Shown here piece after piece: positions 6,162 through 31,486 of a DNA stretch of 35,499 nucleotides (position 1 is its first letter; every line of letters begins with the position of its first letter). The translations under genes were made by a program, and so were the position numbers. The notes beneath the pieces were generated by a model. The model made no database searches. It was not told the origin of the DNA and saw only the letters and a program-made list of their open reading frames with translations. Source of the stretch: a virus; the IMG/VR virus record IMGVR_UViG_3300027985_000585, positions 1 to 35,499 of that record; one strand, 5' to 3'.

Positions 6162-6595
6162 CTTCCCTCCGGCCTCCGTCCCATAACTTTCTCCCACTCC
6201 TCGAAACAGACCTGATAATACAGACTCCTGCTCACCTCAACCTGCTGTCCAAGGTCGCCGTCTGTCTTCAGGTCGATGTCAGGGTGCCGGCCACATCCGC
6301 AGGGGCAGAACTGGTTGGGGTTGATCGGCCTGGTGATTCGCACATCGAAGAACAAGCGCAACCATCGAGCTGTTCTTATGGTGCTGGTCAGTCTGCCATC
6401 GGCCCAATACTTTAGGCCCGATACAATCAGGTCGACGCCGCGAATCCGACAGCATATCACCATCAGAAAGAGGATTGCTCCCCAGAGAAACTGAGCCTCG
6501 TCGATCAGCACAGCTCCTGGTGTCTCGTCCGCCAGCTTCCGGGCCAGGGTCGTCTTGCCACAACGACCGCAACCGACGATGAAGTGTATTTTCAC
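6158..6595 (-). CDS. P-loop NTPase or kinase-like protein, 145 aa
   Basis: GTG 6595 overlaps the stop of the ribbon-helix-helix gene. A Walker A loop, GCGRCGKTT (residues 8-16), opens the protein and AVLIDEAQ (28-35) is a Walker B-like strand. A second Cys cluster, CPCGCGRH (~97-104), could form the zinc knuckle seen in thymidine-kinase-like and other small phage NTPases. The SGLKYW segment also recalls the lid side of thymidine kinase, but the length and order do not let me call it one. Substrate unknown. Confidence 0.7.
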   Translation of the reverse strand: MKIHFIVGCGRCGKTTLARKLADETPGAVLIDEAQFLWGAILFLMVICCRIRGVDLIVSGLKYWADGRLTSTIRTARWLRLFFDVRITRPINPNQFCPCGCGRHPDIDLKTDGDLGQQVEVSRSLYYQVCFEEWEKVMGRRPEGR

Positions 6596-6750
6596 CGTCC
6601 GGCCCTCCTGTCCAAACTCTCTTCAACGATCCTGCTCACGCTGACACCGCGCTCTGCCGCTTCCTTGCGCACTTCAGCCATCTTCCACGCCGGTATTGTC
6701 AGTGTGATCCTTACCCGCTTATCCTTTGCAGCTTTCTTGATGTTTGCCAT
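6592..6750 (-). CDS. Ribbon-helix-helix (Arc/MetJ/CopG-type) DNA-binding protein, 52 aa
   Basis: ATG 6750 follows GAGGTG and encodes a 52-residue basic protein. A beta strand KRVRITLTIP is followed by helix KMAEVRKEAAERG, a turn, and helix SVSRIVEESLDRR, the ribbon-helix-helix layout. Such dimers bind palindromic operators. It is the only classic small transcription-factor fold I see in the genome, so it is the best candidate to bind the palindrome over the early promoter (9046-9061). That link is inference. Confidence 0.75.
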   Translation of the reverse strand: MANIKKAAKDKRVRITLTIPAWKMAEVRKEAAERGVSVSRIVEESLDRRAGR

Positions 6751-6759
6751 TGTCGCACC

Positions 6760-7149
6760 TCAAAATGGCAGATCATCGATGCTGGTATAACCGTCATCGT
6801 CTGCTTCGCGCTGATCATTTCTCTGCTCATCAGCGCGGGTGGCGCCTGAACCGCGGGTGAAGTGAAAACGCTCGACAGCAAGTTCCCAGAGATGCCGCTT
6901 GGTTCCGTCTCCGTGGTCGTAAACGCGCTGGTGAATGCTGCCAGCGACTATGATTTGCTTACCCTTGCCAAAGTGCTGGCCGATTATTTCGGCGGTTTTG
7001 TTGAAGGCAACACAGTTGAAAAAGTCGGTGTGGTCTCGTTTCCAAGGATGATTGACAGCGACAGTAAATTTACATACTGCCTTGCCGTCTGTAGTGTAGC
7101 TGATGTGTGGGTCTTTCGTCAGATTACCCATGATGTTGATGTAGTTCAC
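6760..7149 (-). CDS. ssb: Single-stranded DNA-binding protein
   Basis: 129 residues from GTG 7149, which overlaps the upstream stop (GTGA). The OB-fold start (INIMGNLTKDPHISYT), FNCVAFNKTAEII and GKGKQIIVAGSI match bacterial and phage SSB. A short disordered linker ends in the acidic tail DDLPF, which recruits repair and replication partners. Its place next to the annealing protein fits a replication and recombination cassette. Confidence 0.92.
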   Translation of the reverse strand: MNYINIMGNLTKDPHISYTTDGKAVCKFTVAVNHPWKRDHTDFFNCVAFNKTAEIIGQHFGKGKQIIVAGSIHQRVYDHGDGTKRHLWELAVERFHFTRGSGATRADEQRNDQREADDDGYTSIDDLPF

Positions 7150-9191: not shown

Positions 9192-9800
9192 CTACTGCTG
9201 TGCCACCTCGCTCCCATCTGAGCTTGAAGCCGCCGACTGTGGGTCTACATACGAAACTGTCACCGTCGGCGCCGACTGAGGGAGCGGGATAGACACACCC
9301 TGGATCAGCTTGTAAGCCTTGGCTTTCGCTACGACAGACTCAATGAGCGCTGGAAGCATAGCCCTGAGCATAGGCTGGACAAACGACGGCATAGTCTCAA
9401 TGAGCTGCTCTGCCGACTTCTTCACGGCCTCATAAGCAGATTCGCCTATTGCTTTGGCAATTGCCTTGCGTTCTGCTTCATCGACAACGCCATCGGCTAT
9501 TGCTTTCTGGATCTCTGGCTTGACCTTAGTTTCTGCCTGATTCTGAACCTCAGCCATAACATGGGTCGCCAGCGTGTTGTAACTCTCGTTTTTGATTTTC
9601 GAGAGCAGAAATTGACTGATCAGCGGCCACCACCACCGAGTGGTAAAGGTAGCAAGACCCAGGACAGTCGAAACAACCACATCGAAGACGCGGGTCGTCA
9701 TAGGAACAGACTCTGCTCCACTTTCTGCCGCCAGGGCAATGCCTCCGAACAAAACGAACATGATGACGAACATAAACAGATTCTTTTTGTGCCAAACCAT
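9192..9800 (-). CDS. Putative holin-like membrane protein, last late gene
   Basis: 202 residues from ATG 9800 behind AAGGGG. A hydrophobic segment at residues ~8-26 ending in ALAAES looks like a signal-anchor or cleavable signal. A second hydrophobic segment spans ~37-62 and includes RWWWPLI. A long helical, charged cytoplasmic or periplasmic part and a Ser/Pro-rich tail follow. Position next to the amidase, two hydrophobic segments and size suggest a pore-forming holin; sequence similarity to a named holin family is not clear. Confidence 0.55.
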   Translation of the reverse strand: MVWHKKNLFMFVIMFVLFGGIALAAESGAESVPMTTRVFDVVVSTVLGLATFTTRWWWPLISQFLLSKIKNESYNTLATHVMAEVQNQAETKVKPEIQKAIADGVVDEAERKAIAKAIGESAYEAVKKSAEQLIETMPSFVQPMLRAMLPALIESVVAKAKAYKLIQGVSIPLPQSAPTVTVSYVDPQSAASSSDGSEVAQQ

Positions 9801-9802
9801 GA

Positions 9803-10372
9803 TTATAATCCCCTTTCTTCTATTTCCATTATCGCGCGCACAATGGCCCCTGCGAAGCGCTGAGGCTGTCTCAGGAGCATCATGCAGTCTGGTTTGAGTG
9901 TATCCATGAAAGCGTTCTCAATGAGTACGGCCGGGCCCTTGGTATGCTTCAGAACATAGTAAGCCTTGGCCTTGATTCCGCGCTGCTTCAGTTCCGGAAG
10001 TTCTGATGCCGCATACTTCGCCATGGTTGTGGCCAGAGCGCGGCCCTTCGCCGACCCAGGGCAGTGGTAGACTTCGTATCCGGTGCCGCCTCCTGCGTTG
10101 CAGTGAATCGAAACAAACACTGAGTTGTCAATCTCGTTTGAAATGGCCACACGCTTTTTCAGCGGCATGTCCTCTGGACCCGTTACCGTGATCACACATG
10201 ATATATTGTTTGCGCTCAACGCCCTCGCCACGATGCCGGCAACAACCCTGTTGACCACGCCTTCGTAGATTGAGGGGCCGCCCGGGTAATGATACTGTTT
10301 GCCTTTGGTCTGGTAGACGCCATCGACCATACCTCCGTGGCCAGGATCGAGAACCCAGATATATCTGCTCAC
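9803..10372 (-). CDS. Endolysin, N-acetylmuramoyl-L-alanine amidase (Amidase_3)
   Basis: 189 residues from GTG 10372, which overlaps the upstream stop (GTGA) and follows GGAGG; frames further upstream overlap the zinc-ribbon gene. The zinc ligands and catalytic residue of Amidase_3 are all present: H12 in VLDPGHGG, E37, H90 in VSIHCNAG and E152 in VLIENAF. It cuts the amide bond between muramic acid and the stem peptide. It has no signal peptide and no wall-binding domain, so export should depend on the holin, and the simple build fits a Gram-negative target. Confidence 0.92.
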   Translation of the reverse strand: MSRYIWVLDPGHGGMVDGVYQTKGKQYHYPGGPSIYEGVVNRVVAGIVARALSANNISCVITVTGPEDMPLKKRVAISNEIDNSVFVSIHCNAGGGTGYEVYHCPGSAKGRALATTMAKYAASELPELKQRGIKAKAYYVLKHTKGPAVLIENAFMDTLKPDCMMLLRQPQRFAGAIVRAIMEIEERGL

Positions 10373-10503
10373 TTTTTTCTCGCCTCCATTCCGTGACACA
10401 AGGGACAAAAATAGACACCGCTCAGGGTGTCCTCTGCCATATCTGTTCCACAATGCACACATATCAGGCCACAGCGCATAAACTTCAGCATCCGCTCAAT
10501 CAT
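10369..10503 (-). CDS. Tiny zinc ribbon in the lysis cassette, 44 aa
   Basis: ATG 10503 behind GGGAGG encodes 44 residues with CGLICVHCG and YFCPLCHG knuckles, a four-Cys ribbon. It overlaps the amidase start (GTGA) at its end and nearly abuts the 31-aa ribbon before it. The role is unknown; clean coupling argues it is real. Confidence 0.6.
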   Translation of the reverse strand: MIERMLKFMRCGLICVHCGTDMAEDTLSGVYFCPLCHGMEARKK

Positions 10504-10591
10504 GTTGCCTCCCACAGTTGTCGCAGATCCATTTTCCGGTTGTCCAATCGATAGTCACAGCGCCGCCACATTCGGCACAGCATCTATACAT
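10496..10591 (-). CDS. Tiny zinc ribbon in the lysis cassette, 31 aa
   Basis: ATG 10591 overlaps the end of the TM coiled-coil gene and follows its GGAG site. The 31 residues hold CCAECGG and WICDNCG, two CxxC knuckles separated by a beta hairpin, a minimal zinc ribbon. Together with the 44-aa protein it forms a pair of consecutive mini-ribbons. Confidence 0.55.
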   Translation of the reverse strand: MYRCCAECGGAVTIDWTTGKWICDNCGRQHD

Positions 10592-10970
10592 CATCATCGT
10601 CGATATCGTCTCCTTTCCGCTTCCTGGTCAGGCGTATAATTTGTCTCATAGATTCACGATTCTCTTTCAGAGCGGCTTCGTGAATTTCGCGCTGTTCCTT
10701 TAGGTTCCGAAGCTGTTCTTCTGACAATTTATCGATCTTGTCGTGGAGTTGGCTGAACCTCAAAGAGTTCTTTTCGTCGTCACTTTGGTGGCGCCTCTGA
10801 CAATGATTCGTAGTCTGATACCGATCATCAAGATTTTTGTGAAGGTTGAAACGAAAATCAAGATAATCCTTGACCATGAAGCCGACAGCCGCTGTTATGG
10901 CTGTCGAGTATACCCCGAACGCTATGTTGAGATAAAATTGTATATTTGAAGCCGCAGAAGGATCTGACAT
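10584..10970 (-). CDS. Membrane-anchored coiled-coil protein of the lysis region, 128 aa
   Basis: One transmembrane segment at residues ~10-33 (IQFYLNIAFGVYSTAITAAV) is followed by a long charged coiled coil (~55-115) and an acidic DDIDDDDV tail. One N-terminal TM plus a coiled coil is the layout of inner-membrane spanins and of XhlA-type lysis helpers. No lipoprotein outer spanin is seen nearby, so I leave it as a lysis accessory candidate. Confidence 0.6.
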   Translation of the reverse strand: MSDPSAASNIQFYLNIAFGVYSTAITAAVGFMVKDYLDFRFNLHKNLDDRYQTTNHCQRRHQSDDEKNSLRFSQLHDKIDKLSEEQLRNLKEQREIHEAALKENRESMRQIIRLTRKRKGDDIDDDDV

Positions 10971-16323: not shown

Positions 16324-18483
16324 CTAATAGGCGTAGCGCGTTTTCTGGTATGTCGCTCCGTTGGTCGACATAGCTGATGCAAGGGCCGTGACGCTGGTTG
16401 AGTCGAGGGAAACATTGTTCTTCGCTGCCGAGCTGTAAACGATACCCTCCAGTGATGTTATCTTGCTCTGGATAGCGTCTATCTCGTTCTGGGTGATAGA
16501 GCTGCTGCCAAATTTGTTTATCTCAGCCCGTCTCACGAATGACCATGTTGATAGATCAGCCCTTGCGGCTTCCAGTGCATCGCGTTCAAGAGCGTACGAC
16601 CTGAACTCCGAGGTAGAACCCGTCACAGCTCCAGTGGCTGTCGAACTGGCGGCAGACGACTTGAGCGCATAGAACGCTGAAGGGTCTTCCCTCAGCATGC
16701 CCTGACCCTGCGCAGTCTCGGCCCACGCGTCGAAGGCTTTGGATGGATTGGCGGCGAGGGATTCACCGAAGGCAGAGGCAAAGCTTGTCTGGGTGGTGCT
16801 TTTGGCTTTGGTTGTGGCCGAAGTCTTGCCGGTCATTTTTTCACCACGAAAATCTTCGTAAAGGTCAGAACCAGCAATCACCTTGATTGCCTCAACAATA
16901 GGATCAAGATAGTCCCGGAGATCAGATGCGGCTTGGCCGATATCTTCAAACAATGACACGACCGTTATCTTCATACCCTCGAAAGCACCGGTTACAAATC
17001 CGACAACGCTATCAATCACCTGGAAAGCCATGGGCCACTCATCATGAATATAGGTTGCAATATCCTCAAACAGGTAGCGGATGCCCTCTACAAGGCTAGT
17101 CACGACAAGCTGGATTGCTCCTGCTGCGGCCTGAGTGACAAACTTCAGCTCGTCCCAGAACACGATAACACCGGCTATGGCCGCGCCGATACCAGCAACC
17201 CAAGGAGCGATGGCAAGCAGGGCGGGGCCGAGTACGGTGGTCACGAAAGCCGCCGTTGTAGCAAAAGCTGTCTGTATCGCTCCCCAGGACAGTGCAAAGG
17301 TGGCAAGGGCGGCGCCGAGACCGGTGACAACGGCGGTAAGGCCTGCAATAGCAGTACCTACCAAAGTCATTCCGGCCACGAGCGTTGCGTTGTTATTCAG
17401 GAACTCAAGCATAATCGTGCCTATTTGCACCAGCGGGTCAAAGAAACCTTCGAGTGCTTTGCCGGCGTTGAGGACAAATCTATTATAAGTTTCGGTCATC
17501 TTGTCGATATGACCAGCATAGTTATCTGTAGCTGTGGCGAAGGCCTTATCAACCGAACCAACAGAGTTTTCCATTTTCTGAGCGTTGGCAACGAACTTTT
17601 GCATCTGTTCGCCGGTCAGGGCAAGGGCGCCTTTCAGGGCTCTGATATTTGGGAAGAACTCGGTCATCTTCTCTATATTGCCGCCGGTGGCGTCCCTCAG
17701 CTCTTGCATGAACTCAACCAAGCCCTTAGACTGTAGCGCGGTGAGATTGAACTGAATACCAAGCTGCTCGGCCATTTTAGCAGCACCCTCAGAAGGCTTG
17801 ATGATTGAAAGGATCATCTGGTTGAGTGCCGTAACTGATTCGTCAGCACTTATACCTCCGGCGGTTAATGTCGAGATTGCCGCGTTGAGGTCAGACAGTT
17901 TTACGCCAGCAGTGGCCGCTGTAGAAACAACACCAGAGATTGAACCGGCGTATTGATCTATGGTGATCTTGCCGAGCTTGACAACCTGGAACATCTGGTC
18001 AAATATTTCCTGGGTGCTGCCGATCTGACTCCCAAAGGTGTTCATGATCGTTGTTCCGGCATCGACAACCTGGAAGGTATCAGCAAGTCCGGCCCGTGCA
18101 GTTTTGGCAGCTTCGGTTACAAGTCCAACAGCTTTCGCAGGAGCGGCACCGGCTGAGAGCGCCTGGTAAAGTGCGTCTGTGTTTTTCGCTGCCGATCCGA
18201 GTTCTGGAGATAAAGCACGAATCTGCTCATCAAAGTCGCTGATCTGGCGTTTTACATCTCCTTCGAGCAAAGTCCCAACATTGCCAAGATTCTTAGAATA
18301 TTCAGCAACGGCACCGCTCATTTGACCGAGAGCCAAAACACCAGCCGCAGCAGCAGCTCCAGCGGCGACGGATATATTGGTTAATGTGCTTGCGGTAGTT
18401 TTCAGTTGGGCGTTTGCGGCAGAAATTGTTTCCGCTCCCGTTACCTTGAAAACTATTTTCTCTATCACTTCATTTGCGGCCAT
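16324..18483 (-). CDS. Tail tape measure protein (TP901-type), 719 aa
   Basis: ATG 18483 follows GGAGG; the chaperone extension ends just inside it. Residues ~60-320 carry the TP901 tape-measure core (DTFQVVDAGTTIMNTFG, TLTAGGISADESVTALNQM and the ALKGALALTGEQ helix). Hydrophobic stretches at ~37-55 and ~366-443 are the membrane-active segments used in DNA delivery. At about 0.15 nm per residue the tail would be roughly 100 nm. No peptidoglycan-cutting domain is visible. Confidence 0.93.
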   Translation of the reverse strand: MAANEVIEKIVFKVTGAETISAANAQLKTTASTLTNISVAAGAAAAAGVLALGQMSGAVAEYSKNLGNVGTLLEGDVKRQISDFDEQIRALSPELGSAAKNTDALYQALSAGAAPAKAVGLVTEAAKTARAGLADTFQVVDAGTTIMNTFGSQIGSTQEIFDQMFQVVKLGKITIDQYAGSISGVVSTAATAGVKLSDLNAAISTLTAGGISADESVTALNQMILSIIKPSEGAAKMAEQLGIQFNLTALQSKGLVEFMQELRDATGGNIEKMTEFFPNIRALKGALALTGEQMQKFVANAQKMENSVGSVDKAFATATDNYAGHIDKMTETYNRFVLNAGKALEGFFDPLVQIGTIMLEFLNNNATLVAGMTLVGTAIAGLTAVVTGLGAALATFALSWGAIQTAFATTAAFVTTVLGPALLAIAPWVAGIGAAIAGVIVFWDELKFVTQAAAGAIQLVVTSLVEGIRYLFEDIATYIHDEWPMAFQVIDSVVGFVTGAFEGMKITVVSLFEDIGQAASDLRDYLDPIVEAIKVIAGSDLYEDFRGEKMTGKTSATTKAKSTTQTSFASAFGESLAANPSKAFDAWAETAQGQGMLREDPSAFYALKSSAASSTATGAVTGSTSEFRSYALERDALEAARADLSTWSFVRRAEINKFGSSSITQNEIDAIQSKITSLEGIVYSSAAKNNVSLDSTSVTALASAMSTNGATYQKTRYAY

Positions 18484-22295: not shown

Positions 22296-23243
22296 TTAGA
22301 GGCTCCATTTTATTTGTGTTGATACTGAAAATTCAGCGTCGTCGACCTGATCAATACTTCCGTCGTTATCCTCGTCGTAACTGATAACGAGCTTGTCCAT
22401 CATGTCCTTGATTCGCTCGTCGTAGTATCTGCGCTGAAGATCATATTCGTCGTCTTCCTGCTTGGCCTTGCCCTGGAAAATGAGGCGCATAGAATAAAGG
22501 ATCTGAAGTTCCTTAAGTTGAGGAATGTCGCATATCCTGTTGTACAGAATACCTTTGGCTCGGAGATCAGAAATAAGCGCCTCAACCGCTCTGTTGATTG
22601 CCATAAAATAGGTGAAAACGCAATACACTGATGTCGTATCGATGGCTGAATCAAAAACGGGGATCACCGTGAGTGTTCCGGTTGAATCGTCATAATCGGT
22701 CACGCGTCGTTTGGCGCCCCTATTAGTTCCGTCTAGAATCCTGACTACCGATCCGTTGAAAACATCATTTTTGAAAAATCCCTTCAGCTCGTTGGCGTCG
22801 ACTATGGTTCCGGCTGTACCGCTGGACGCAGTGCCTCTCAAAGAATATTGCTGATCCTCATAATTGAGTTTTGGCGATTCAGCGAATAGATCGCGGTCGG
22901 TAATGAGTATAGGAACTTTCTTATACTCGACATCAAAGTAGTGGACGAAGGTATAAACGATACCACTGATCGTGACAAGCCATGTAGCCCTATACTTTTT
23001 GCCGCTATTTGCGAGTTGTGCGGCTGTAAGAGAATACGAAACATTTGAACCACTAATGGTAGCGTCTTCACCAGATACCGCTGTGTCAGGAAGAGCAGAC
23101 TCGCCGGGCTGTACAATCGTCACAGTGGCGGCAGACGGGGTGACATAAGCATTATCGAAAAGCGCATCGAACGATAATGTTCCTGCTGCATCTTCAATAA
23201 GCGAAGCTACTGCATTGTCGATCGTAAAGCCTATATTGTTCAC
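22296..23243 (-). CDS. Putative head-tail connector-region protein, 315 aa
   Basis: GTG 23243 overlaps the upstream stop (GTGA). The N-terminal ~115 residues are an Ig-like beta domain. A middle beta segment (GSVVRILDGTNRGAKRRV) follows. The C-terminal ~100 residues are helical (ALISDLRAKGILYNRI, DEYDLQRRYYDERIKDMM), as in gp6-like connectors, and hold DEDNDGSID, a canonical EF-hand-like calcium loop. A fusion of an Ig-like domain to a connector helix domain is my reading. Confidence 0.5.
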   Translation of the reverse strand: MNNIGFTIDNAVASLIEDAAGTLSFDALFDNAYVTPSAATVTIVQPGESALPDTAVSGEDATISGSNVSYSLTAAQLANSGKKYRATWLVTISGIVYTFVHYFDVEYKKVPILITDRDLFAESPKLNYEDQQYSLRGTASSGTAGTIVDANELKGFFKNDVFNGSVVRILDGTNRGAKRRVTDYDDSTGTLTVIPVFDSAIDTTSVYCVFTYFMAINRAVEALISDLRAKGILYNRICDIPQLKELQILYSMRLIFQGKAKQEDDEYDLQRRYYDERIKDMMDKLVISYDEDNDGSIDQVDDAEFSVSTQIKWSL

Positions 23244-23512
23244 TTTCTATCTCTTTTCTTTCTTGACTTCTTAGATGGAATTTCAGCCGCAACCTTTTCG
23301 GGTTCGGGTTCTGTTTCCTGGACGATAATATCAATAGTCTCCGTTTCTGGTTCAGGTTCGATAGTGATTGGTTCGGGCGATAATGAAGAACAAGGAAACA
23401 TCTTTTCAATGATAGTGTCGAGTTTCTTGTTGAGATCGATCAAAAGCTCGTTGGTGAATATTCCCCGCTCTCTGTCGTTGAGCATATCGTCTTTAATTTT
23501 TGGTTTGTGCAT
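23240..23512 (-). CDS. Acidic Pro/Glu-rich protein with basic tail, 90 aa
   Basis: ATG 23512 follows AAGGAGG at good spacing. After a helical N-terminus a PEPETE-type repeat region (~50-75) is followed by a basic tail (SKKSRKKRDRK). It is probably disordered. Encoded among virion genes; the function is unknown. Confidence 0.6.
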   Translation of the reverse strand: MHKPKIKDDMLNDRERGIFTNELLIDLNKKLDTIIEKMFPCSSLSPEPITIEPEPETETIDIIVQETEPEPEKVAAEIPSKKSRKKRDRK

Positions 23513-23524
23513 CGTCAATCCTCC

Positions 23525-24331
23525 TTATGGATTCTTTACGCGGTGGCCTGTTGCCGTGACTGTGCCGATGGTCAGGCCCGTGAGATCGTCTCTTACAATA
23601 AACTGGAGTTCGTCACCGTCTGGGCCGAATATACGAATGGCCACGCCGTTTATCTGGTTTATTTGCTTGCGGCATCTCAAACCATAAACGCCGGCCGGAG
23701 CTTTTGGATCGTATTCTAGCGCGTAACCTATTTCGCTGAAGCCTATATTGTTGACCACAAATGAAAGATTTTTGTTCACTCCGTTGGCGTGGCGAAAAAG
23801 GACGCCATTCGTCAAAGCGGTCAGGCCTCCAAATTTTGCGGAATCCATATCTGCGTTATCTGTCATCGTAATCGTCAAAGCATAAATATCGAACGAAGCA
23901 TTGGGAGGCGCTTTGATTTTGTATGTCTTGTTTGTGCTTGAACCGTCAACATTGAACTTCCACGCACCAACCTCTACGACAGCAGCCGATGTGAAGGCAT
24001 GATCAATTGGTGACTGAACACCTATACTGGTTCCGTTTATGTTCTTGACCAGCGTCTGAAAGAAGTAAATATCCTCATACACGGTCAACACATCGGCCAC
24101 ATCGATGCCCGTTGCACTCGTAACCTCAAATGTGGCAGCATCAACAACGGCTGTTTTTGTGAGTGTCGTCGATGCCTCTAGATTGTAAAGATACATATTC
24201 ACCGGCTCTGTGGTCTGATCTTGGATAGCCACATCGACATACTGTGCAAATCCATCGTTTACGGTTTTGTTGGCCATTGCCGGCAAAGAAAAAAATAAAG
24301 TTACGAACATAGCTATGACAACGCGCTTCAT
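23525..24331 (-). CDS. Virion-region protein with Sec signal peptide, 268 aa
   Basis: ATG 24331. MKRVVIAMFVTLFFSLPAMA with a likely cut after residue 20 is a textbook signal peptide. The mature part is beta-rich and ends in ELQFIVRDDLTGLTIGTV, a motif I associate with phage structural proteins. A signal peptide on a gene inside the head module is unusual. The protein may act in the periplasm, or the segment may serve another targeting role. Confidence 0.65.
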   Translation of the reverse strand: MKRVVIAMFVTLFFSLPAMANKTVNDGFAQYVDVAIQDQTTEPVNMYLYNLEASTTLTKTAVVDAATFEVTSATGIDVADVLTVYEDIYFFQTLVKNINGTSIGVQSPIDHAFTSAAVVEVGAWKFNVDGSSTNKTYKIKAPPNASFDIYALTITMTDNADMDSAKFGGLTALTNGVLFRHANGVNKNLSFVVNNIGFSEIGYALEYDPKAPAGVYGLRCRKQINQINGVAIRIFGPDGDELQFIVRDDLTGLTIGTVTATGHRVKNP

Positions 24332-24339
24332 GTCAACTC

Positions 24340-24894
24340 CTAATCCGTATATTCGTGAGTATAGATCTTTACATTGACTGTCGTGTCGCCAGTTCCAGAC
24401 ATGAGAGTAGCTGATATTCTAGTCCCTGCAGCGATGGGCGGCCCCTGTATTGGGACATCAGAACCTCTGACCTGGTTTGTGTCCTTAAAAAACGAACACT
24501 CGCCCCAAAACACCTCTTCTCCTTCTGCGCCTTGGTATATTTTAACAACATAATCATCAACAGCGCTGATTGCGCCCAGAATCACATAATGAATATCAAA
24601 GGCGTTTGTTTTTGTTTCAGCGGCTATAATTTGAGTTTTAGCCCCTTCAGTGTAGGCGCCTGTTCCGGCCGTAAGAGTAATAGGAGCAGCGTCCCTAGGA
24701 TAAACAAGCGACGGACTATGCACATGATGATAGAGCATAAAGCCAGCGATGCCATAGAGCGAATCAGTCCCTGGCCCGGATAGATTGGCGTCGGCTTTGT
24801 TTCCAATAACCTGATTTATGGTCAGTGATGTCATAGAATTGGCCGGAGCCGCCTGGATCTGCTGATCAATGCCGCCGTTTACTATGGTAGTCAT
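24340..24894 (-). CDS. Virion-region beta-rich protein without signal peptide, 184 aa
   Basis: ATG 24894 overlaps the previous stop (ATGA). The protein is Ala/Thr/Gly-rich with IRISATLMSG-like strands and ends YTHEYTD. It lies between two signal-peptide genes and could be a capsid or connector decoration. The family is unknown. Confidence 0.55.
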   Translation of the reverse strand: MTTIVNGGIDQQIQAAPANSMTSLTINQVIGNKADANLSGPGTDSLYGIAGFMLYHHVHSPSLVYPRDAAPITLTAGTGAYTEGAKTQIIAAETKTNAFDIHYVILGAISAVDDYVVKIYQGAEGEEVFWGECSFFKDTNQVRGSDVPIQGPPIAAGTRISATLMSGTGDTTVNVKIYTHEYTD

Positions 24895-25343
24895 TTCCAC
24901 TCAATCTTTCTGAATGTTATGGCAATGCTTACAAGATTAGAATCGCAGCCCGAGGCGGTAAACTTGAGGATGTCGCTGACACCCTTCCGGCTCGATGTTT
25001 TGTGGATCAAAATTACTTCATCTTTGCCAAACGAAACAAAACTAGATGTTGATGACGATGGCGTTGGAGCTGCTATTGCGTAGTCGTATCCAGAGCCTTC
25101 GCCGCAATCAACTGTAACTGTCTGCGTTGATGTCTCGGATGTCGAATACCCATAACTGATACTCACCAGAGCAATGTTGTCTGGAACCTCGTATGTTACG
25201 CCAGAACCGTTCAGTTCGGTTGATGTTCCTGTGAGCGTAACTCGGTCAAAGGCGAACCTCGCCACAGGAGCGGCGCCTGCAACACTTGAAAGAACAATTA
25301 TGGCCAGAAAAAGAACTATGATGCAGAATGTTGATTCTTTCAT
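24891..25343 (-). CDS. Small virion-region protein with Sec signal peptide, 150 aa
   Basis: ATG 25343, after TTGGAG, is chosen because it places a signal peptide at the N-terminus: MKESTFCIIVLFLAIIVLSS, then VAGAAP with a likely cut near residue 23-24. The mature ~125 residues are Ser/Thr/Val-rich beta sequence. A GC-rich hairpin (25362-25384) stands just before the ribosome site. Confidence 0.6.
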   Translation of the reverse strand: MKESTFCIIVLFLAIIVLSSVAGAAPVARFAFDRVTLTGTSTELNGSGVTYEVPDNIALVSISYGYSTSETSTQTVTVDCGEGSGYDYAIAAPTPSSSTSSFVSFGKDEVILIHKTSSRKGVSDILKFTASGCDSNLVSIAITFRKIEWK

Positions 25344-25361
25344 TGTTTCTCCAAAAGAATG

Positions 25362-25384
25362 AGGAGAGGCCGGTGGCCCCTCCT
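25362..25384 (-). other. Hairpin upstream of second signal-peptide gene
   Basis: AGGAGGGGCC-ACC-GGCCTCTCCT forms ten pairs with one G-T. No T run follows, so it is not a classic terminator. Its arms share GGAGGGGC and GCCTCTCC with the hairpin at 26333-26354. Confidence 0.65.
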
Positions 25385-25389
25385 TTAGG

Positions 25390-26316
25390 TTATCTGGTAT
25401 GACCGCAGAATATGTAATCAACACTGACGGCTTTTGCGCCGCCGGCATCTCTGCTTTCTATGTTCACAGTGGCGTAAACCTTCGTTGCCGCCGTGATAGC
25501 GTTGGCAGTTAGAGATCCGACGAGAGTTCCATTGATATAAAAGCTTGCCGTGGTTCCCGCGGCTGGTATCTCGATCCTGAGAATCTGATAAGTATCAGCC
25601 ACAGGCGTGGATGTAGTGATGCCGTTTCCGGTTGCGTCAGTGTTAGCTTTGACGCCCACAACATACCATTTATCGGTAGTCTGATCGGTGTCGTAAACAA
25701 ACACGCAAGCATCGGATGCGTTTGTAGTTATGGTTGTGCCCGAAATTTCAGCGGGCATCTCCAGGGAAGTTGAGTCGGTCAGACCGGCGTTTATACAGAC
25801 ATTTTCAACACTTGAACCAATGAAAATCCTCGTCTCAAAAACGAGGCCACCCTTTGAAGCCTGAACAGGTACGGAAAGTAGGACCTGTGAGCCGTCATTA
25901 TCAGATGCCGCTGTTGTAGCCGAAATGACACCTCCGACGGCCGCAGCCGTAACGGCAAAATCGTTGGTATCAGCATTGAGTATCACGCCGTGAATCTGCT
26001 CGTATGATGCCCCTGTAATAGAGGTCATAACGAAGTCCTGACACTGCTGGAAATATGTCCCAACATTGATAGGAGCAGCCGGAGTTATGGCACTCGACAG
26101 CGCCACGGTTCCGGTTACCGTCATTGTCCCGGTAATCGTCGCAGCGCCCGTTACAGAAAGATCGCCACCAACTGAAGCATCATCGCCGACAGACAGATCA
26201 TCTCCGGAGGTGATGTCTCCTGACGCCACAACATTGGTGAAATTCGTGTCTCCGTCGGCAGCAAAGCAGACGGAACAGGCAAGCATAAGCGCGATCATAA
26301 TTGCAAATATTCTCAT
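25390..26316 (-). CDS. Large virion-region protein with Sec signal peptide and repeat shaft, 308 aa
   Basis: ATG 26316. Residues 1-19 (MRIFAIMIALMLACSVCFA) form a signal peptide with a likely cut before ADGD. Residues ~28-72 are short repeats of a GDLSVTGAATITG type, as in fibre shafts. The C-terminal ~200 residues look like a concanavalin-like beta sandwich (DTYQILRIEIPAAG, ASFYINGTLVGSL), often glycan binding. It directly follows the capsid gene, so it could be an exported or surface-decorating adhesin. Confidence 0.65.
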   Translation of the reverse strand: MRIFAIMIALMLACSVCFAADGDTNFTNVVASGDITSGDDLSVGDDASVGGDLSVTGAATITGTMTVTGTVALSSAITPAAPINVGTYFQQCQDFVMTSITGASYEQIHGVILNADTNDFAVTAAAVGGVISATTAASDNDGSQVLLSVPVQASKGGLVFETRIFIGSSVENVCINAGLTDSTSLEMPAEISGTTITTNASDACVFVYDTDQTTDKWYVVGVKANTDATGNGITTSTPVADTYQILRIEIPAAGTTASFYINGTLVGSLTANAITAATKVYATVNIESRDAGGAKAVSVDYIFCGHTR

Positions 26317-26332: not shown

Positions 26333-26354
26333 CGGAGAGGCCGAAGCCCCTCCG
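26333..26354 (-). other. UUCG hairpin downstream of the capsid gene
   Basis: CGGAGGGGC-TTCG-GCCTCTCCG, nine pairs with one G-T and an extra-stable UUCG loop, sits between the capsid stop and the next ribosome site. No T tract follows. It may protect the abundant capsid message or pause RNA polymerase. Confidence 0.65.
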
Positions 26355-26366
26355 GTGATCACGCTA

Positions 26367-27284
26367 CTATGAAGGGTTGGAGCCGTAAATCCAGCGCCAG
26401 TCACTGAAACCAACAGCGTGTCTCATACGAACTGCATACTTAAGGAGGAATCCGTCAAAGTTGCCTGTTTCGACAACATTAGGAGCTTCGCGCTCCATCC
26501 AAAGGAGGTACATCTTCATCAGACGAGCGTCGGTAAGGAACCAAGCATCTGAGTTTGTCAAAAGAGGACAAACCATAGGCTCGATGTTGTAGCCAGGCAT
26601 TCCAGGTATGTTGTTGGAGTTGATGTTGTTGTTGGCGGTATTCGCAAGATTCATGCTCTTGCAAATTTCAATAGCAGTTTCTCCGTTGCCAGGGGCAACA
26701 AGAAGAAGAGATGGAATGACATTGGCCTTGAAGCCATCGTCGCTGTTGAAAGACATCATGGCCTGTCTCGCGGCATTGACCCCGGACACACTGAGAGCTG
26801 CTGTTCCGAGATTGGACTGAGCACCCTGAAGCGAAGGATTGGAAGAGGGGTGATCCGCAGCGCAAAGTGCTTTGCCGTCGCCACCAGTGAAAACTGTTGT
26901 GTCGAACGCGTGGTTGAAAATGTCGATGCCATGAAGCTGTCTTGTTTTGTAAGCATCGAGGCCTCTGGCTCTGGCCCTGCGCTCGATTATACCGTACTGG
27001 TCATCGTCAACAAGATCGCGTTCAATAGCAATACCCTTGGCATAAGTCTTGATGGGATAGTCAACCTTGAATCCCTGGGTGAGGTCTCCATAAGAAAGAA
27101 CGCCGTCGAATACGGGAATTTCACCAGAACCAACAATAGACTCGTCGTGTTCGACTGCCTTTGTGGAAGGGGTGATGTTGTAGAGCATTGAAACCCAGTC
27201 AGGGCCAGCGCCGAATTCTTCAAAGAACCACTTGCGAATTCCGGGCTCAAGGACCTGCTGCATATTGGGGGCTGTAACAGTCAT
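26367..27284 (-). CDS. Major capsid protein (Mu gpT-like group), 305 aa
   Basis: ATG 27284. The length, VLEPGIRKWFFEEF start, AKGIAIERDLVDDDQYGII, CAADHPSSN and the closing MRHAVGFSDWRWIYGSNPS agree with HK97-fold capsids of the Mu gpT-like type. In these the QPY/ERDL-type helix and the final aromatic patch are conserved. A separate scaffold gene precedes it. Confidence 0.8.
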   Translation of the reverse strand: MTVTAPNMQQVLEPGIRKWFFEEFGAGPDWVSMLYNITPSTKAVEHDESIVGSGEIPVFDGVLSYGDLTQGFKVDYPIKTYAKGIAIERDLVDDDQYGIIERRARARGLDAYKTRQLHGIDIFNHAFDTTVFTGGDGKALCAADHPSSNPSLQGAQSNLGTAALSVSGVNAARQAMMSFNSDDGFKANVIPSLLLVAPGNGETAIEICKSMNLANTANNNINSNNIPGMPGYNIEPMVCPLLTNSDAWFLTDARLMKMYLLWMEREAPNVVETGNFDGFLLKYAVRMRHAVGFSDWRWIYGSNPS

Positions 27285-28187: not shown

Positions 28188-28748
28188 TTAATCCTCGTTT
28201 GTTTTCTGCTGGCCTTTGCCCATGAAAGAAATGTATTCCTCTTCAGTCATGCGCATAGCCTTGGCTGCTGTTTTTTGAGCAAGGTTCAGACCTCCAGGCG
28301 TTGGAGCCGGCTTGCTCGGAGGAGTGCCGCTTGTGAGAGAAACGGAAGATGGAACGGGCTTTCCTATTAACAGCGTTTCATTCTTGGCGATGTACCGAAG
28401 CTGTTCGGCTGGCGTCAGCGAGTCTGGTATAAGTCCGCGCCTGTCTTCCGGAATTGCCGCAAGTTTGGCGGAAAGCGTTTCGGTTATCGTTGATTCGTAT
28501 AGATCAACCTTGCTTGCCTTTGCTTCCAACTCTGCAATCCTGGCGCTCGTCTTTTCCGCTTCGGTCATACGCTCGTCCTCAATTTGCTTCCTGAAGGCCA
28601 TAAGTTCTTCATTCTGCTTCTCAAGTTCACGCGCTCTGGCCTTAGCCTCGTCTCTCGCCTTGAAAGCCTTCTTCATCTCATCTGCATCGTTCAAGGTATC
28701 CACCTTGACGATCCCGGAATCCACCTTGGGAGCAGCGTTCTCTGTCAT
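28188..28748 (-). CDS. Putative head scaffold protein, 186 aa
   Basis: Start at ATG 28748 after AAAGGTGG; an upstream GTG (28781) is the alternative. A long Lys/Glu/Ala coiled coil at ~25-90 is followed by a Pro-rich linker (SGTPPSKPAPTPGG) and a helical C-terminus. This is the classic scaffold layout between portal and capsid. It shapes the procapsid and leaves before packaging. Confidence 0.75.
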   Translation of the reverse strand: MTENAAPKVDSGIVKVDTLNDADEMKKAFKARDEAKARARELEKQNEELMAFRKQIEDERMTEAEKTSARIAELEAKASKVDLYESTITETLSAKLAAIPEDRRGLIPDSLTPAEQLRYIAKNETLLIGKPVPSSVSLTSGTPPSKPAPTPGGLNLAQKTAAKAMRMTEEEYISFMGKGQQKTNED

Positions 28749-28790: not shown

Positions 28791-30173
28791 TTACTGTGCG
28801 CCGAAAGTAGCGCTTGAAAACTTTTTCTCAATCTGCTTCCAATCCTTGTCCGCTTTTTCCTGGCGCGCTATGATTTCTTCGTCGGTTACGGCGCCATCAT
28901 TATGGTACTGCTTGTATAGGTCAAGCGGAGAAGCAAGCAGATACTTTCGCTGAAGCTCAAAGTCTGCCGTAATTTCTTCGACGGTCTTTTCAAAGCTTAT
29001 CTCACCAAAATCAATATCTATATTTGAATTTGTGTTCACATCTGCACCAGCCAACGTCATCGATTTTTTCCACAATTCAAATATCTTAGCCTCATATGAA
29101 TACCAATACTTTATTTGCCGCTGTCTTTCTTCAACGAGCCTGCGAGCCGAAGCTTTAAGCGCTTCGCCCGAAGGAGCGTTGCCTTCGAGTCTGAGTGACA
29201 TCGGATCAATGTTGAATTCGTTGGCCGCCTCTGCGCGCTTCTCCTTCGATATCACCCACAGTTCGGCTATTGCTGGGCGTGGCGTGGCGAAGTCAAGCCT
29301 CCCCTCATTGCCATCAATATCTGAGTTGAAAACAAGGGGTCTGGCTGGAGACAAAACCGGCTGGTTCTTGCCCTGCCAGTTTGTGATGAATGGAACCGAA
29401 AAGGCTTGGTGAGCCTTAATATATTCCATTTCGGTTTCTTCGATATTAATCCCGGACTGAAGATCAACAAGGCGCTCAGACGGCATATCAAAATATTCAT
29501 CCGTTACAAGCTGGTACTCGCACTTAACAAAGTTGAGCTCGTTATACGGATTGACCATGTCAGGGTTTTCCGGAAGTGTTATGATGTTGTCCGATTCGTC
29601 AAAAACGAAATGACGCTCTGAATCGGTATATACATACAAAATTTTGGGATCGTTGGTTATCGTATCGACCGTGTTTATTTCGTAGATTATTGCGATAGCC
29701 TCAGAAGGTTTCAACGGATTCTGAACCACATCAGTAATACCCTGGCCGATTATATCGAGAGCCACATCATCGCCGTCTCGGTTGACCCTGATGTGAATCG
29801 TACGCTGTACAAATGTCATTTTGTTGGCAAGATCCATCAGTAAATCAAGCTGTATTTTTTGCGCCCATTCTTTATAAAGCTTGTCTGTTTTCTCATGGTC
29901 AACTTTGCGGATCACAGAATTTTTGTACACCATTGAGTTGGCGTCTGCAATCATGGCCATCATGTTGGGGCCGAGGCGCATATATTCTTTAACCAGGTCT
30001 TTCGACTCAGGGAACAGATCGTATATGTCCTGCTCAAGATAGACTCGTTGACGGCCCTTGTAATAATTCCAAGACTTTTCGGCAAGCTTTTTGCGCTGCT
30101 CATTGGCAACGGCTTTCGCTCTCGTTATTGATTCTTGAACTGTTTTCGGTGCTTCGCTTGAGAAAAGGGCCAT
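28791..30173 (-). CDS. Portal protein, 460 aa
   Basis: Start at ATG 30173 after GAGGGA rather than further upstream, where no ribosome site exists. The length and order are those of SPP1/HK97-type portals: helical start, WNYYKGRQ, a beta wing with YEINTVDTITNDPKILY and a conserved LRLEGNAPSGEALK-type segment before the long stem helix. It forms the dodecameric ring through which TerL pumps DNA. Confidence 0.88.
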   Translation of the reverse strand: MALFSSEAPKTVQESITRAKAVANEQRKKLAEKSWNYYKGRQRVYLEQDIYDLFPESKDLVKEYMRLGPNMMAMIADANSMVYKNSVIRKVDHEKTDKLYKEWAQKIQLDLLMDLANKMTFVQRTIHIRVNRDGDDVALDIIGQGITDVVQNPLKPSEAIAIIYEINTVDTITNDPKILYVYTDSERHFVFDESDNIITLPENPDMVNPYNELNFVKCEYQLVTDEYFDMPSERLVDLQSGINIEETEMEYIKAHQAFSVPFITNWQGKNQPVLSPARPLVFNSDIDGNEGRLDFATPRPAIAELWVISKEKRAEAANEFNIDPMSLRLEGNAPSGEALKASARRLVEERQRQIKYWYSYEAKIFELWKKSMTLAGADVNTNSNIDIDFGEISFEKTVEEITADFELQRKYLLASPLDLYKQYHNDGAVTDEEIIARQEKADKDWKQIEKKFSSATFGAQ

Positions 30174-30232: not shown

Positions 30233-31486
30233 TTAAAAAGTTGCTTTGCCTTGACCAGTGTAAATATCTCGTTTTGGCCAAAGATAATCGACTACATAAC
30301 AAAGCGAGTCACATCTATGAACATAATAATCATCGTCTGGCTGCATTGTATCGCGCTTATATTGATGGCGCCTAAGCGCTTCTATCGTCTTCTTGCACTT
30401 CGGATCTACAAACAATCTGCGCTTCCCTGCGGCACTGCAAAAACGAGAATTGCAAGCAGTTATGCGATCCTTTACCGACATCGTTCTTGAATGTGCGTAA
30501 ACATTGAATCCCGCTTCTCGTAGAATAACAAAATCAGTTTTACTCGCAACATTTGATGTTTTCCTTGCGGCGCCGGTTGGATCGGGATATACATTTCTGA
30601 GTTCTGGCCACTTCTCACGCATTTCAGCGGCTATTGCTGGCGTGTTTCCGTTCGGCATGTCTATCTCGTCGATTACATAAGCCGTGTCACCGTCATGGAC
30701 AATCAGCGTGGCCGGAAGATATGGAACAACATTGAAATCTAGTCCTGCGGCAAGAACTCCATGCCTGAAAACATCAGCAGGACAACTCTTGATAGAATCG
30801 TCATCAAATCCGTAATATGGGCGCCCTCCAAATGTTTCGAACGATGCCTCATACTCTTGCCTAAATGATATAGGGTCAAGTTCGTTTCTCGCCGCTTCTA
30901 TTTCATGAGCAGGAAGCACCTCAGACGAAGGCCAACTAAAAAACGACCAGTTTTCAGGATCTTCCATCGCTTTCAATTTAAGGTCGTACAAAAATCCAAG
31001 CTGATTCGGTACGCCTGTAAATGTAGCCTTCCCAAGCCTGTCAGAGAGGCACGGCCGCAGATGCTCAGCCCATGTCTGCCGAGGGTGTTTGATATCGTCT
31101 ATTTCGTCAATAAAGAATTCATCCCACGGCGAACCCTCAATCCTGGCAGGTTTGTCAAGGCCACATACAACCAGTTCTGTACCCGTTATGAGCTGTATGG
31201 TCATGTCGGTCTCGCGTGGACTGCCAATCATCAAAGCTTTTGGAATCATCTGCTTGAGGTCTTTCCACCAGATAGACCTTGCTTGTTGATTAGTTGGCGC
31301 CAGAAACCCATACCGGCCAGGCCACGGCTTTGCATGAAGTATCGACCGTTTGGCTCCGTCTCGCTTTGCGCGCTCTGTCTTGCCCGAACGACGGCCAGCA
31401 CACGCCACTCTGAACCGGCTTTGGCATAACTGGAAAGCTCTGCCTTGCTCGTTCTCTATGAGTGGGAAAAGCCTGTTGTAACTCAT
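30233..31486 (-). CDS. terL: Terminase large subunit, 417 aa
   Basis: ATG 31486. Walker A GRRSGKT (31-37), Walker B FFIDE (124-128) with catalytic E128, and a coupling-type motif FTGVP (~156-160) form the ATPase motor. The RNase H-like nuclease domain keeps its acids: D250 (GLDFNV), D302 (YPDPTG) and D393 (HRCDSLCYVVDY). It cuts concatemers and drives DNA into the procapsid. It follows the small subunit by 12 bases. Confidence 0.95.
   Translation of the reverse strand: MSYNRLFPLIENEQGRAFQLCQSRFRVACAGRRSGKTERAKRDGAKRSILHAKPWPGRYGFLAPTNQQARSIWWKDLKQMIPKALMIGSPRETDMTIQLITGTELVVCGLDKPARIEGSPWDEFFIDEIDDIKHPRQTWAEHLRPCLSDRLGKATFTGVPNQLGFLYDLKLKAMEDPENWSFFSWPSSEVLPAHEIEAARNELDPISFRQEYEASFETFGGRPYYGFDDDSIKSCPADVFRHGVLAAGLDFNVVPYLPATLIVHDGDTAYVIDEIDMPNGNTPAIAAEMREKWPELRNVYPDPTGAARKTSNVASKTDFVILREAGFNVYAHSRTMSVKDRITACNSRFCSAAGKRRLFVDPKCKKTIEALRRHQYKRDTMQPDDDYYVHRCDSLCYVVDYLWPKRDIYTGQGKATF

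What the first reader, a model, noticed from the sequence alone, without database searches (positions are those of the whole stretch)
23525..26316. Three genes with Sec signal peptides inside the head module
Three of four genes between the capsid gene and the connector region start with clear signal peptides (MRIFAIMIALMLACSVCFA; MKESTFCIIVLFLAIIVLSS; MKRVVIAMFVTLFFSLPAMA). Virion proteins assemble in the cytoplasm and normally lack these. The set may be exported proteins that modify the cell surface, block superinfection or coat virions at lysis, or virion proteins using an odd targeting step. One carries a likely glycan-binding beta sandwich.
Basis: partly seen in the sequence, partly recalled or inferred. 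Interest (0 to 1): 0.75.

Follow-up and report, generated by a model that had tools for sequence, protein, structure and literature searches.

The report
Exported cassette behind a phage capsid
Right after its capsid gene this uncultured bacterial virus carries three genes whose proteins appear to be sent out of the host cytoplasm; one belongs to a family that other viruses normally make without an export tag, and that tag has been added at least five separate times, which suggests viruses repeatedly turn structural-region proteins into secreted ones, perhaps to cover the host surface.

Summary
Genes A (25390-26316), B (24891-25343) and D (23525-24331), all on the minus strand, have well-supported starts and classical signal peptides. 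Gene C (24340-24894), nested among them, has none. Decoy N-termini pass the same test 0.3% of the time. The signal is not private to this phage. A different, BPP-1-type podophage (L027) has signal-peptide homologues of A and D behind its own capsid and cement-like genes. A's linker is replaced between the two phages, but signal and C-terminal domain are kept. D belongs to an undescribed family (46 members, no PHROG or Pfam family) found in structural regions of very different tailed phages. Forty members lack a signal at every possible start; six have one, needing at least five independent switches. L055 and L068 share 91% identical cores but have exchanged N-termini. So these look like Sec-exported versions of phage structural-region (adhesin or decoration-like) proteins. 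Most likely they act in or on the host envelope to mask the phage's ligand (superinfection exclusion), as T5 Llp does by other means; that role is inferred. Late attachment to virions is the main rival. Glycan binding is not established. SignalP and proteomics were not available.

The parts
25390..26316 (-). Gene A (308 aa): signal peptide, fibre-shaft-like repeat linker (res ~30-75), C-terminal domain (res 88-308) conserved in L027
   Evidence: 65% identity over res 88-308 in L027, alignment
26260..26316 (-). Signal peptide of A (MRIFAIMIALMLACSVCFA)
   Evidence: counterpart MRITASLVVAVLVLVLGVCFA in L027
24891..25343 (-). Gene B (150 aa): signal peptide, 126-aa mature part with 2 Cys; no relatives found
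25272..25343 (-). Signal peptide of B (MKESTFCIIVLFLAIIVLSSVAGA)
24340..24894 (-). Gene C (184 aa), no signal peptide; 43% identical relative directly behind a D homologue in an archaeal-MAG provirus (L088)
23525..24331 (-). Gene D (268 aa): signal peptide plus two-domain all-beta core; founding member here of a 46-member family
24272..24331 (-). Signal peptide of D (MKRVVIAMFVTLFFSLPAMA)
26333..26354 (-). G+C-rich stem-loop between capsid gene and A
   Evidence: z = -2.6
25362..25384 (-). Terminator-like stem-loop between A and B, similar sequence to the one before A
   Evidence: z = -3.0; family D19
26367..27284 (-). Major capsid protein (Mu gpT-like), context
   Evidence: PF10124 4e-18, phrog_371 9.8e-23
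23240..23512 (-). Small gene (90 aa) without signal, end of the block

Best explanation
A, B and D are late phage proteins made with cleavable Sec signal peptides and exported from the infected cell. D (and by its looks A, a shaft-like linker plus a beta domain) is an exported version of a structural-module protein (adhesin, fibre or decoration type) that other phages make in the cytoplasm without a signal. Export was acquired by adding or swapping the N-terminus, at least five times in the D family. Most likely the mature proteins sit in the periplasm or on the outside of the infected or lysed cell and occupy the ligand that the phage uses, so that related phages and the progeny do not re-adsorb to that cell or its debris (superinfection exclusion by masking). 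Shown by sequence: signals, genomic place, repeated gain, conservation. Inferred: actual cleavage and export, relation to virion parts, and the masking role (this last step alone about 0.35).
For: SD-supported starts and signals far above decoys. Signals kept in L027, a phage with an unrelated BPP-1-type capsid, while A's linker was replaced. D family: 6 of 46 with a signal, the other 40 with none at any start; five independent changes, bootstrap range 5-5. L055/L068: 91% identical cores, N-terminus swapped for signal plus extra domain. D with a signal tends to have a signal-bearing neighbour (3 of 6 against 1 of 40, p = 0.005; p = 0.029 if window and L027 count once); in L061 both D and its neighbour, a relative of L027's third signal gene, have one. 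Signal-bearing proteins behind or near related capsids also occur in L009, L010, L013 (10 Cys at matching positions, as expected in an oxidising compartment) and L015 (766-aa fibre-like repeats). Neighbours of D are head, neck, portal or adaptor genes. Precedent: T5 Llp, encoded next to the receptor-binding gene, and Rtp45 block receptors from the periplasm, and added purified T5 pb5 itself blocks infection (PMC9586334, PMC12685063).
Against: No direct evidence of export, cleavage or of a ligand. C, in the same block, has no signal. D itself has a single Cys and no envelope-retention motif. D homologues have not been shown here to be virion parts; that rests on gene neighbourhood and weak fold resemblance. 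The known exclusion proteins are small lipoproteins encoded beside the receptor-binding gene, unlike these.
Confidence: 0.5

Rival explanations
1. They are virion proteins that take a detour: exported, folded (with disulfides) in the periplasm, and joined to the surface of finished particles only when the cell lyses.
For: Head-module place in both the window and L027; unsignalled relatives sit in structural modules; fibre-like architecture of A and of L015's protein; Cys-rich signal-bearing proteins behind capsids in L009, L010 and L013.
Against: No known tailed phage adds parts this way that I know of (own knowledge; nothing found). Attachment after lysis would be diluted.
Confidence: 0.2
2. 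They are morons: exported proteins that give an infected or lysogenic host a new surface property (adhesion, glycan binding), unrelated to excluding phages.
For: A is flanked by stem-loops on both sides and also has one on each side in L027; B has no relatives.
Against: No promoter above chance; tight late operon with overlapping starts; no integrase was looked for in detail, so a temperate lifestyle is unknown.
Confidence: 0.15
3. The hydrophobic N-termini are not cleaved signals but short membrane or assembly anchors of virion or lysis proteins.
For: L061's D and its neighbour have longer hydrophobic segments that could be anchors.
Against: A, B and D of the window and all three of L027 end in A-x-A-like -3/-1 motifs.
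Confidence: 0.1
4. Chance or wrong start calls.
For: Forty D relatives lack the segment.
Against: SD sites at the signal-bearing starts, decoy rate 0.33%, conservation in L027.
Confidence: 0.03

Closest known systems
Superinfection-exclusion lipoproteins (T5 Llp, T1-type Cor, Rtp45)
   Same: Phage-encoded, exported, encoded inside or beside structural genes; proposed outcome (no re-adsorption) the same
   Different: Those are small lipoproteins beside the receptor-binding gene; A, B and D are 150-308 aa, have no lipobox by reading of the sequence, and lie behind the capsid gene
D homologues of Vibrio phages PS25B.1 and 1.021.A (hypothetical proteins)
   Same: Same core family (about 28% identity), in the head module
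   Different: No signal peptide; longer N-terminus; placed between terminase and portal
L027 cassette (IMGVR_UViG_3300027985_001075)
   Same: A and D homologues with signals behind capsid and cement-like genes
   Different: Different capsid and phage type; third signal-bearing gene is a phrog_5335 relative; B and C absent

Membership tests
Sec (SPase I) secreted proteins | Positive n-region, hydrophobic h-region, A-x-A-like cleavage site at an SD-supported start | tested here: met
   (own rule, not SignalP)
Sec (SPase I) secreted proteins | Actual cleavage and export | not testable with these tools
   needs experiment
Superinfection-exclusion lipoproteins (Llp/Cor type) | Lipobox ([LVI][ASTVI][GAS]C) | tested here: not met
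   reading of A (MLAC, VCFA), B and D N-termini
Superinfection-exclusion lipoproteins (Llp/Cor type) | Gene next to the receptor-binding gene | tested here: not met
   they lie between capsid and connector genes
Superinfection-exclusion lipoproteins (Llp/Cor type) | Blocks receptor | not testable with these tools
   needs experiment
Capsid cement/decoration proteins | Homology to a known cement protein | tested here: not met
   no confident PHROG or Pfam match of A, B or D; L027 keeps a separate cement-like gene at 6378-6785
Bactofilin (PF04519) | Score above gathering cut-off | tested here: not met
   A scores 19.7 against 27.9, over the repeat linker only
Moron | Own promoter and terminator around the gene | tested here: inconclusive
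   stem-loops flank A; promoter-like sites not above shuffles
Carbohydrate-binding beta sandwich | Confident fold match to a CBM or lectin | tested here: inconclusive
   D core pLDDT about 97, but no PDB match at E<=0.001 (best 2.6e-3; CBM28 at rank 45, E 0.05); A's model failed

The most novel reading that the evidence does not exclude
Tailed phages repeatedly and recently switch a structural-module protein family between a cytoplasmic (virion) form and a Sec-exported form by swapping the N-terminus, so that copies of their own adhesin-like parts become secreted decoys or post-lysis virion coats: a general, so far undescribed route to exported phage proteins.
Probability: 0.35. Interest if true: 0.8.

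Novelty: new variant of a known kind. Interest (0 to 1): 0.62.

Why it matters
Tailed-phage particles are built in the cytoplasm, so Sec signals in the head module break a working rule of phage annotation. If structural-type proteins are repeatedly re-tagged for export, that gives a simple origin for superinfection-exclusion proteins, points to which structural-region 'hypotheticals' act in the host envelope, and opens the question whether some virion parts are added outside the cytoplasm. The L055/L068 pair makes the switch directly testable.

Tried and rejected
Single-protein scans of viral contigs for C, D and the terminase gave no relatives; the alignment scan for C (A11) also gave none. 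The genome-contig scan with A4 gave none, and with A2 one archaeal MAG. tblastn of A, B, C, P0014 and P0010 against cultured phages: no match; P0016: none at E<=1e-3 and only weak, partial matches at E<=10. Structure of A: mean pLDDT 39, not used further. A bactofilin reading of A was rejected (below cut-off). A cement-protein reading was rejected (no homology; L027 has both). A lipoprotein reading was rejected (no lipobox). Cysteine enrichment as general proof of export was not upheld for D, only for L009/L010/L013, L015 and partly A and B. Literature searches found no report of signal-tagged structural-module proteins in tailed phages.

Full report
What is there. The window is a 35.5-kb viral contig of a siphophage-like virus with its late genes on the minus strand: terminase 30233-31486, portal 28791-30173, scaffold 28188-28748, Mu gpT-like capsid 26367-27284, tape measure 16324-18483, endolysin about 9803-10462. 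Between capsid and connector-region genes lie A, B, C, D and a 90-aa gene. A, B and D begin with signal peptides at SD-supported starts; C does not. B's start is ATG 25343, not the longest-ORF start.

Is it more than chance? With a home-made rule (SignalP was not available), internal-Met decoys pass at 0.33% and genes with an SD site at 26 of 941; shuffles of the three N-termini rarely reach their scores. The only other flagged late-strand gene in the window sits beside the endolysin. The 4 flagged genes of 52 fall three within a run of four with p = 0.026.

Relatives. A's C-terminal part is 65% identical to a protein of a 43-kb contig (L027) whose capsid belongs to the BPP-1/phiV10 type, and in which the window's capsid finds no match. 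There, behind capsid and a cement-like gene (6378-6785, read), come three genes, all with signals: an A homologue, a D homologue (49% identical) and a third protein (P0016) that matches phrog_5335. Between the two A proteins the linker is entirely different, yet both signal and C-terminal domain are kept, which is what selection on the signal would leave. The A linker of the window (repeats such as DLSVTGAATITGT) looks like a fibre shaft; this is my reading, the Bactofilin match is below cut-off.

The D family. A degenerate scan found 59 loci. Forty-six non-redundant members form a family with no PHROG match and no Pfam match beyond two isolated weak ones. Their flanking genes on either side match terminase, portal, capsid, adaptor, neck and head-morphogenesis families. 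Forty members have no signal at any possible start; six do: window, L027 (=L029), L050, L055, L077, and L061, whose longer segment could also be an anchor. A maximum-likelihood tree of the core needs five changes, with a bootstrap range of 5-5. The neatest pair is L055/L068: 87% DNA identity across the core, 91% protein identity, but L055 starts with a signal plus an extra domain whose like stands signal-free in the gene before it. Vibrio phages PS25B.1 and 1.021.A have signal-free homologues between terminase and portal.

Company. In L061 D is followed by a relative of P0016, and both have an N-terminal hydrophobic signal. A signal on D goes with a signal on a near neighbour (3 of 6 against 1 of 40, p = 0.005; 0.029 when window and L027 count once); the numbers are small and the choice of what counts as adjacent was mine. 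Gene C has a 43% identical relative directly behind a D homologue at the tail-fibre end of a provirus in a Thermoplasmatales MAG, neither with a signal. So D and C are companions that occur in head and in fibre regions. Among phages with related capsids, cultured and complete ones (L021-L026) have no such genes, but L009, L010 and L013 have a signal-bearing protein with ten Cys at matching positions right behind the capsid, and L015 a 766-aa fibre-like protein with a signal.

Structure. D's core is predicted at pLDDT about 97 as two beta domains. PDB matches are all weaker than E = 0.001; the small first domain resembles parts of a phage depolymerase, a tailspike and a tail tube (ranks 1, 2, 6), and the second gives scattered weak jelly-roll matches. 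In the viral library the best match (E = 3.3e-20, A0A2I7QKZ4, 320 aa, unnamed) has the length of the Vibrio 1.021 homologue. So 'beta sandwich' is right and 'glycan-binding' unproven. A's model failed.

Mechanism. Late expression is inferred from the operon. Sec export of A, B and D is well supported by sequence but not measured. That D derives from a virion-type protein is inferred from neighbourhood and from unsignalled relatives. The role I think most likely is masking of the phage's own ligand on the infected cell and its debris. T5 shows that both an exported small protein (Llp) and free receptor-binding protein (pb5) block infection, and that the Llp gene lies next to pb5 (PMC9586334); Rtp45 is a second case (PMC12685063). 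Membership in the Llp/Cor class is rejected (no lipobox, wrong place); only the proposed outcome is alike. Attachment to virions at lysis is the chief rival and would be the more surprising result.

Verdict. Eight literature searches did not turn up a description of it, in an open-access library only.

Noticed in passing
L088:7995-9283: D and C homologues side by side at the tail-fibre end of a contractile-tail-type provirus in a Thermoplasmatales MAG (CP070712.1): the same pair in a bacterial siphophage and an apparent archaeal provirus.
   Followed up: partly
L009:2942-3676, L010:7898-8632, L013:3079-3798: Protein directly behind the capsid gene with a signal peptide and ten cysteines at matching positions; no match in cultured phages.
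   Followed up: partly
L015:6335-8635: 766-aa fibre-like repeat protein with a clear signal peptide and 12 cysteines, in the late genes of a phage with a related capsid.
   Followed up: partly
L006:2060-2632 and L010:1844-2368: Signal-bearing proteins just before the portal gene that look like small outer-membrane barrels.
   Followed up: no
window 25362-25384 and 26333-26354: Two similar G+C-rich stem-loops flank gene A; L027's A is also followed by a stem-loop with a T run.
   Followed up: partly
window 9192-9800: 202-aa protein with signal peptide beside the endolysin and a small membrane protein (10584-10970): probably spanin or holin related.
   Followed up: no
L055:1411-2790: A small domain stands alone without a signal and again, behind a signal, fused to D in the next gene.
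   Followed up: partly
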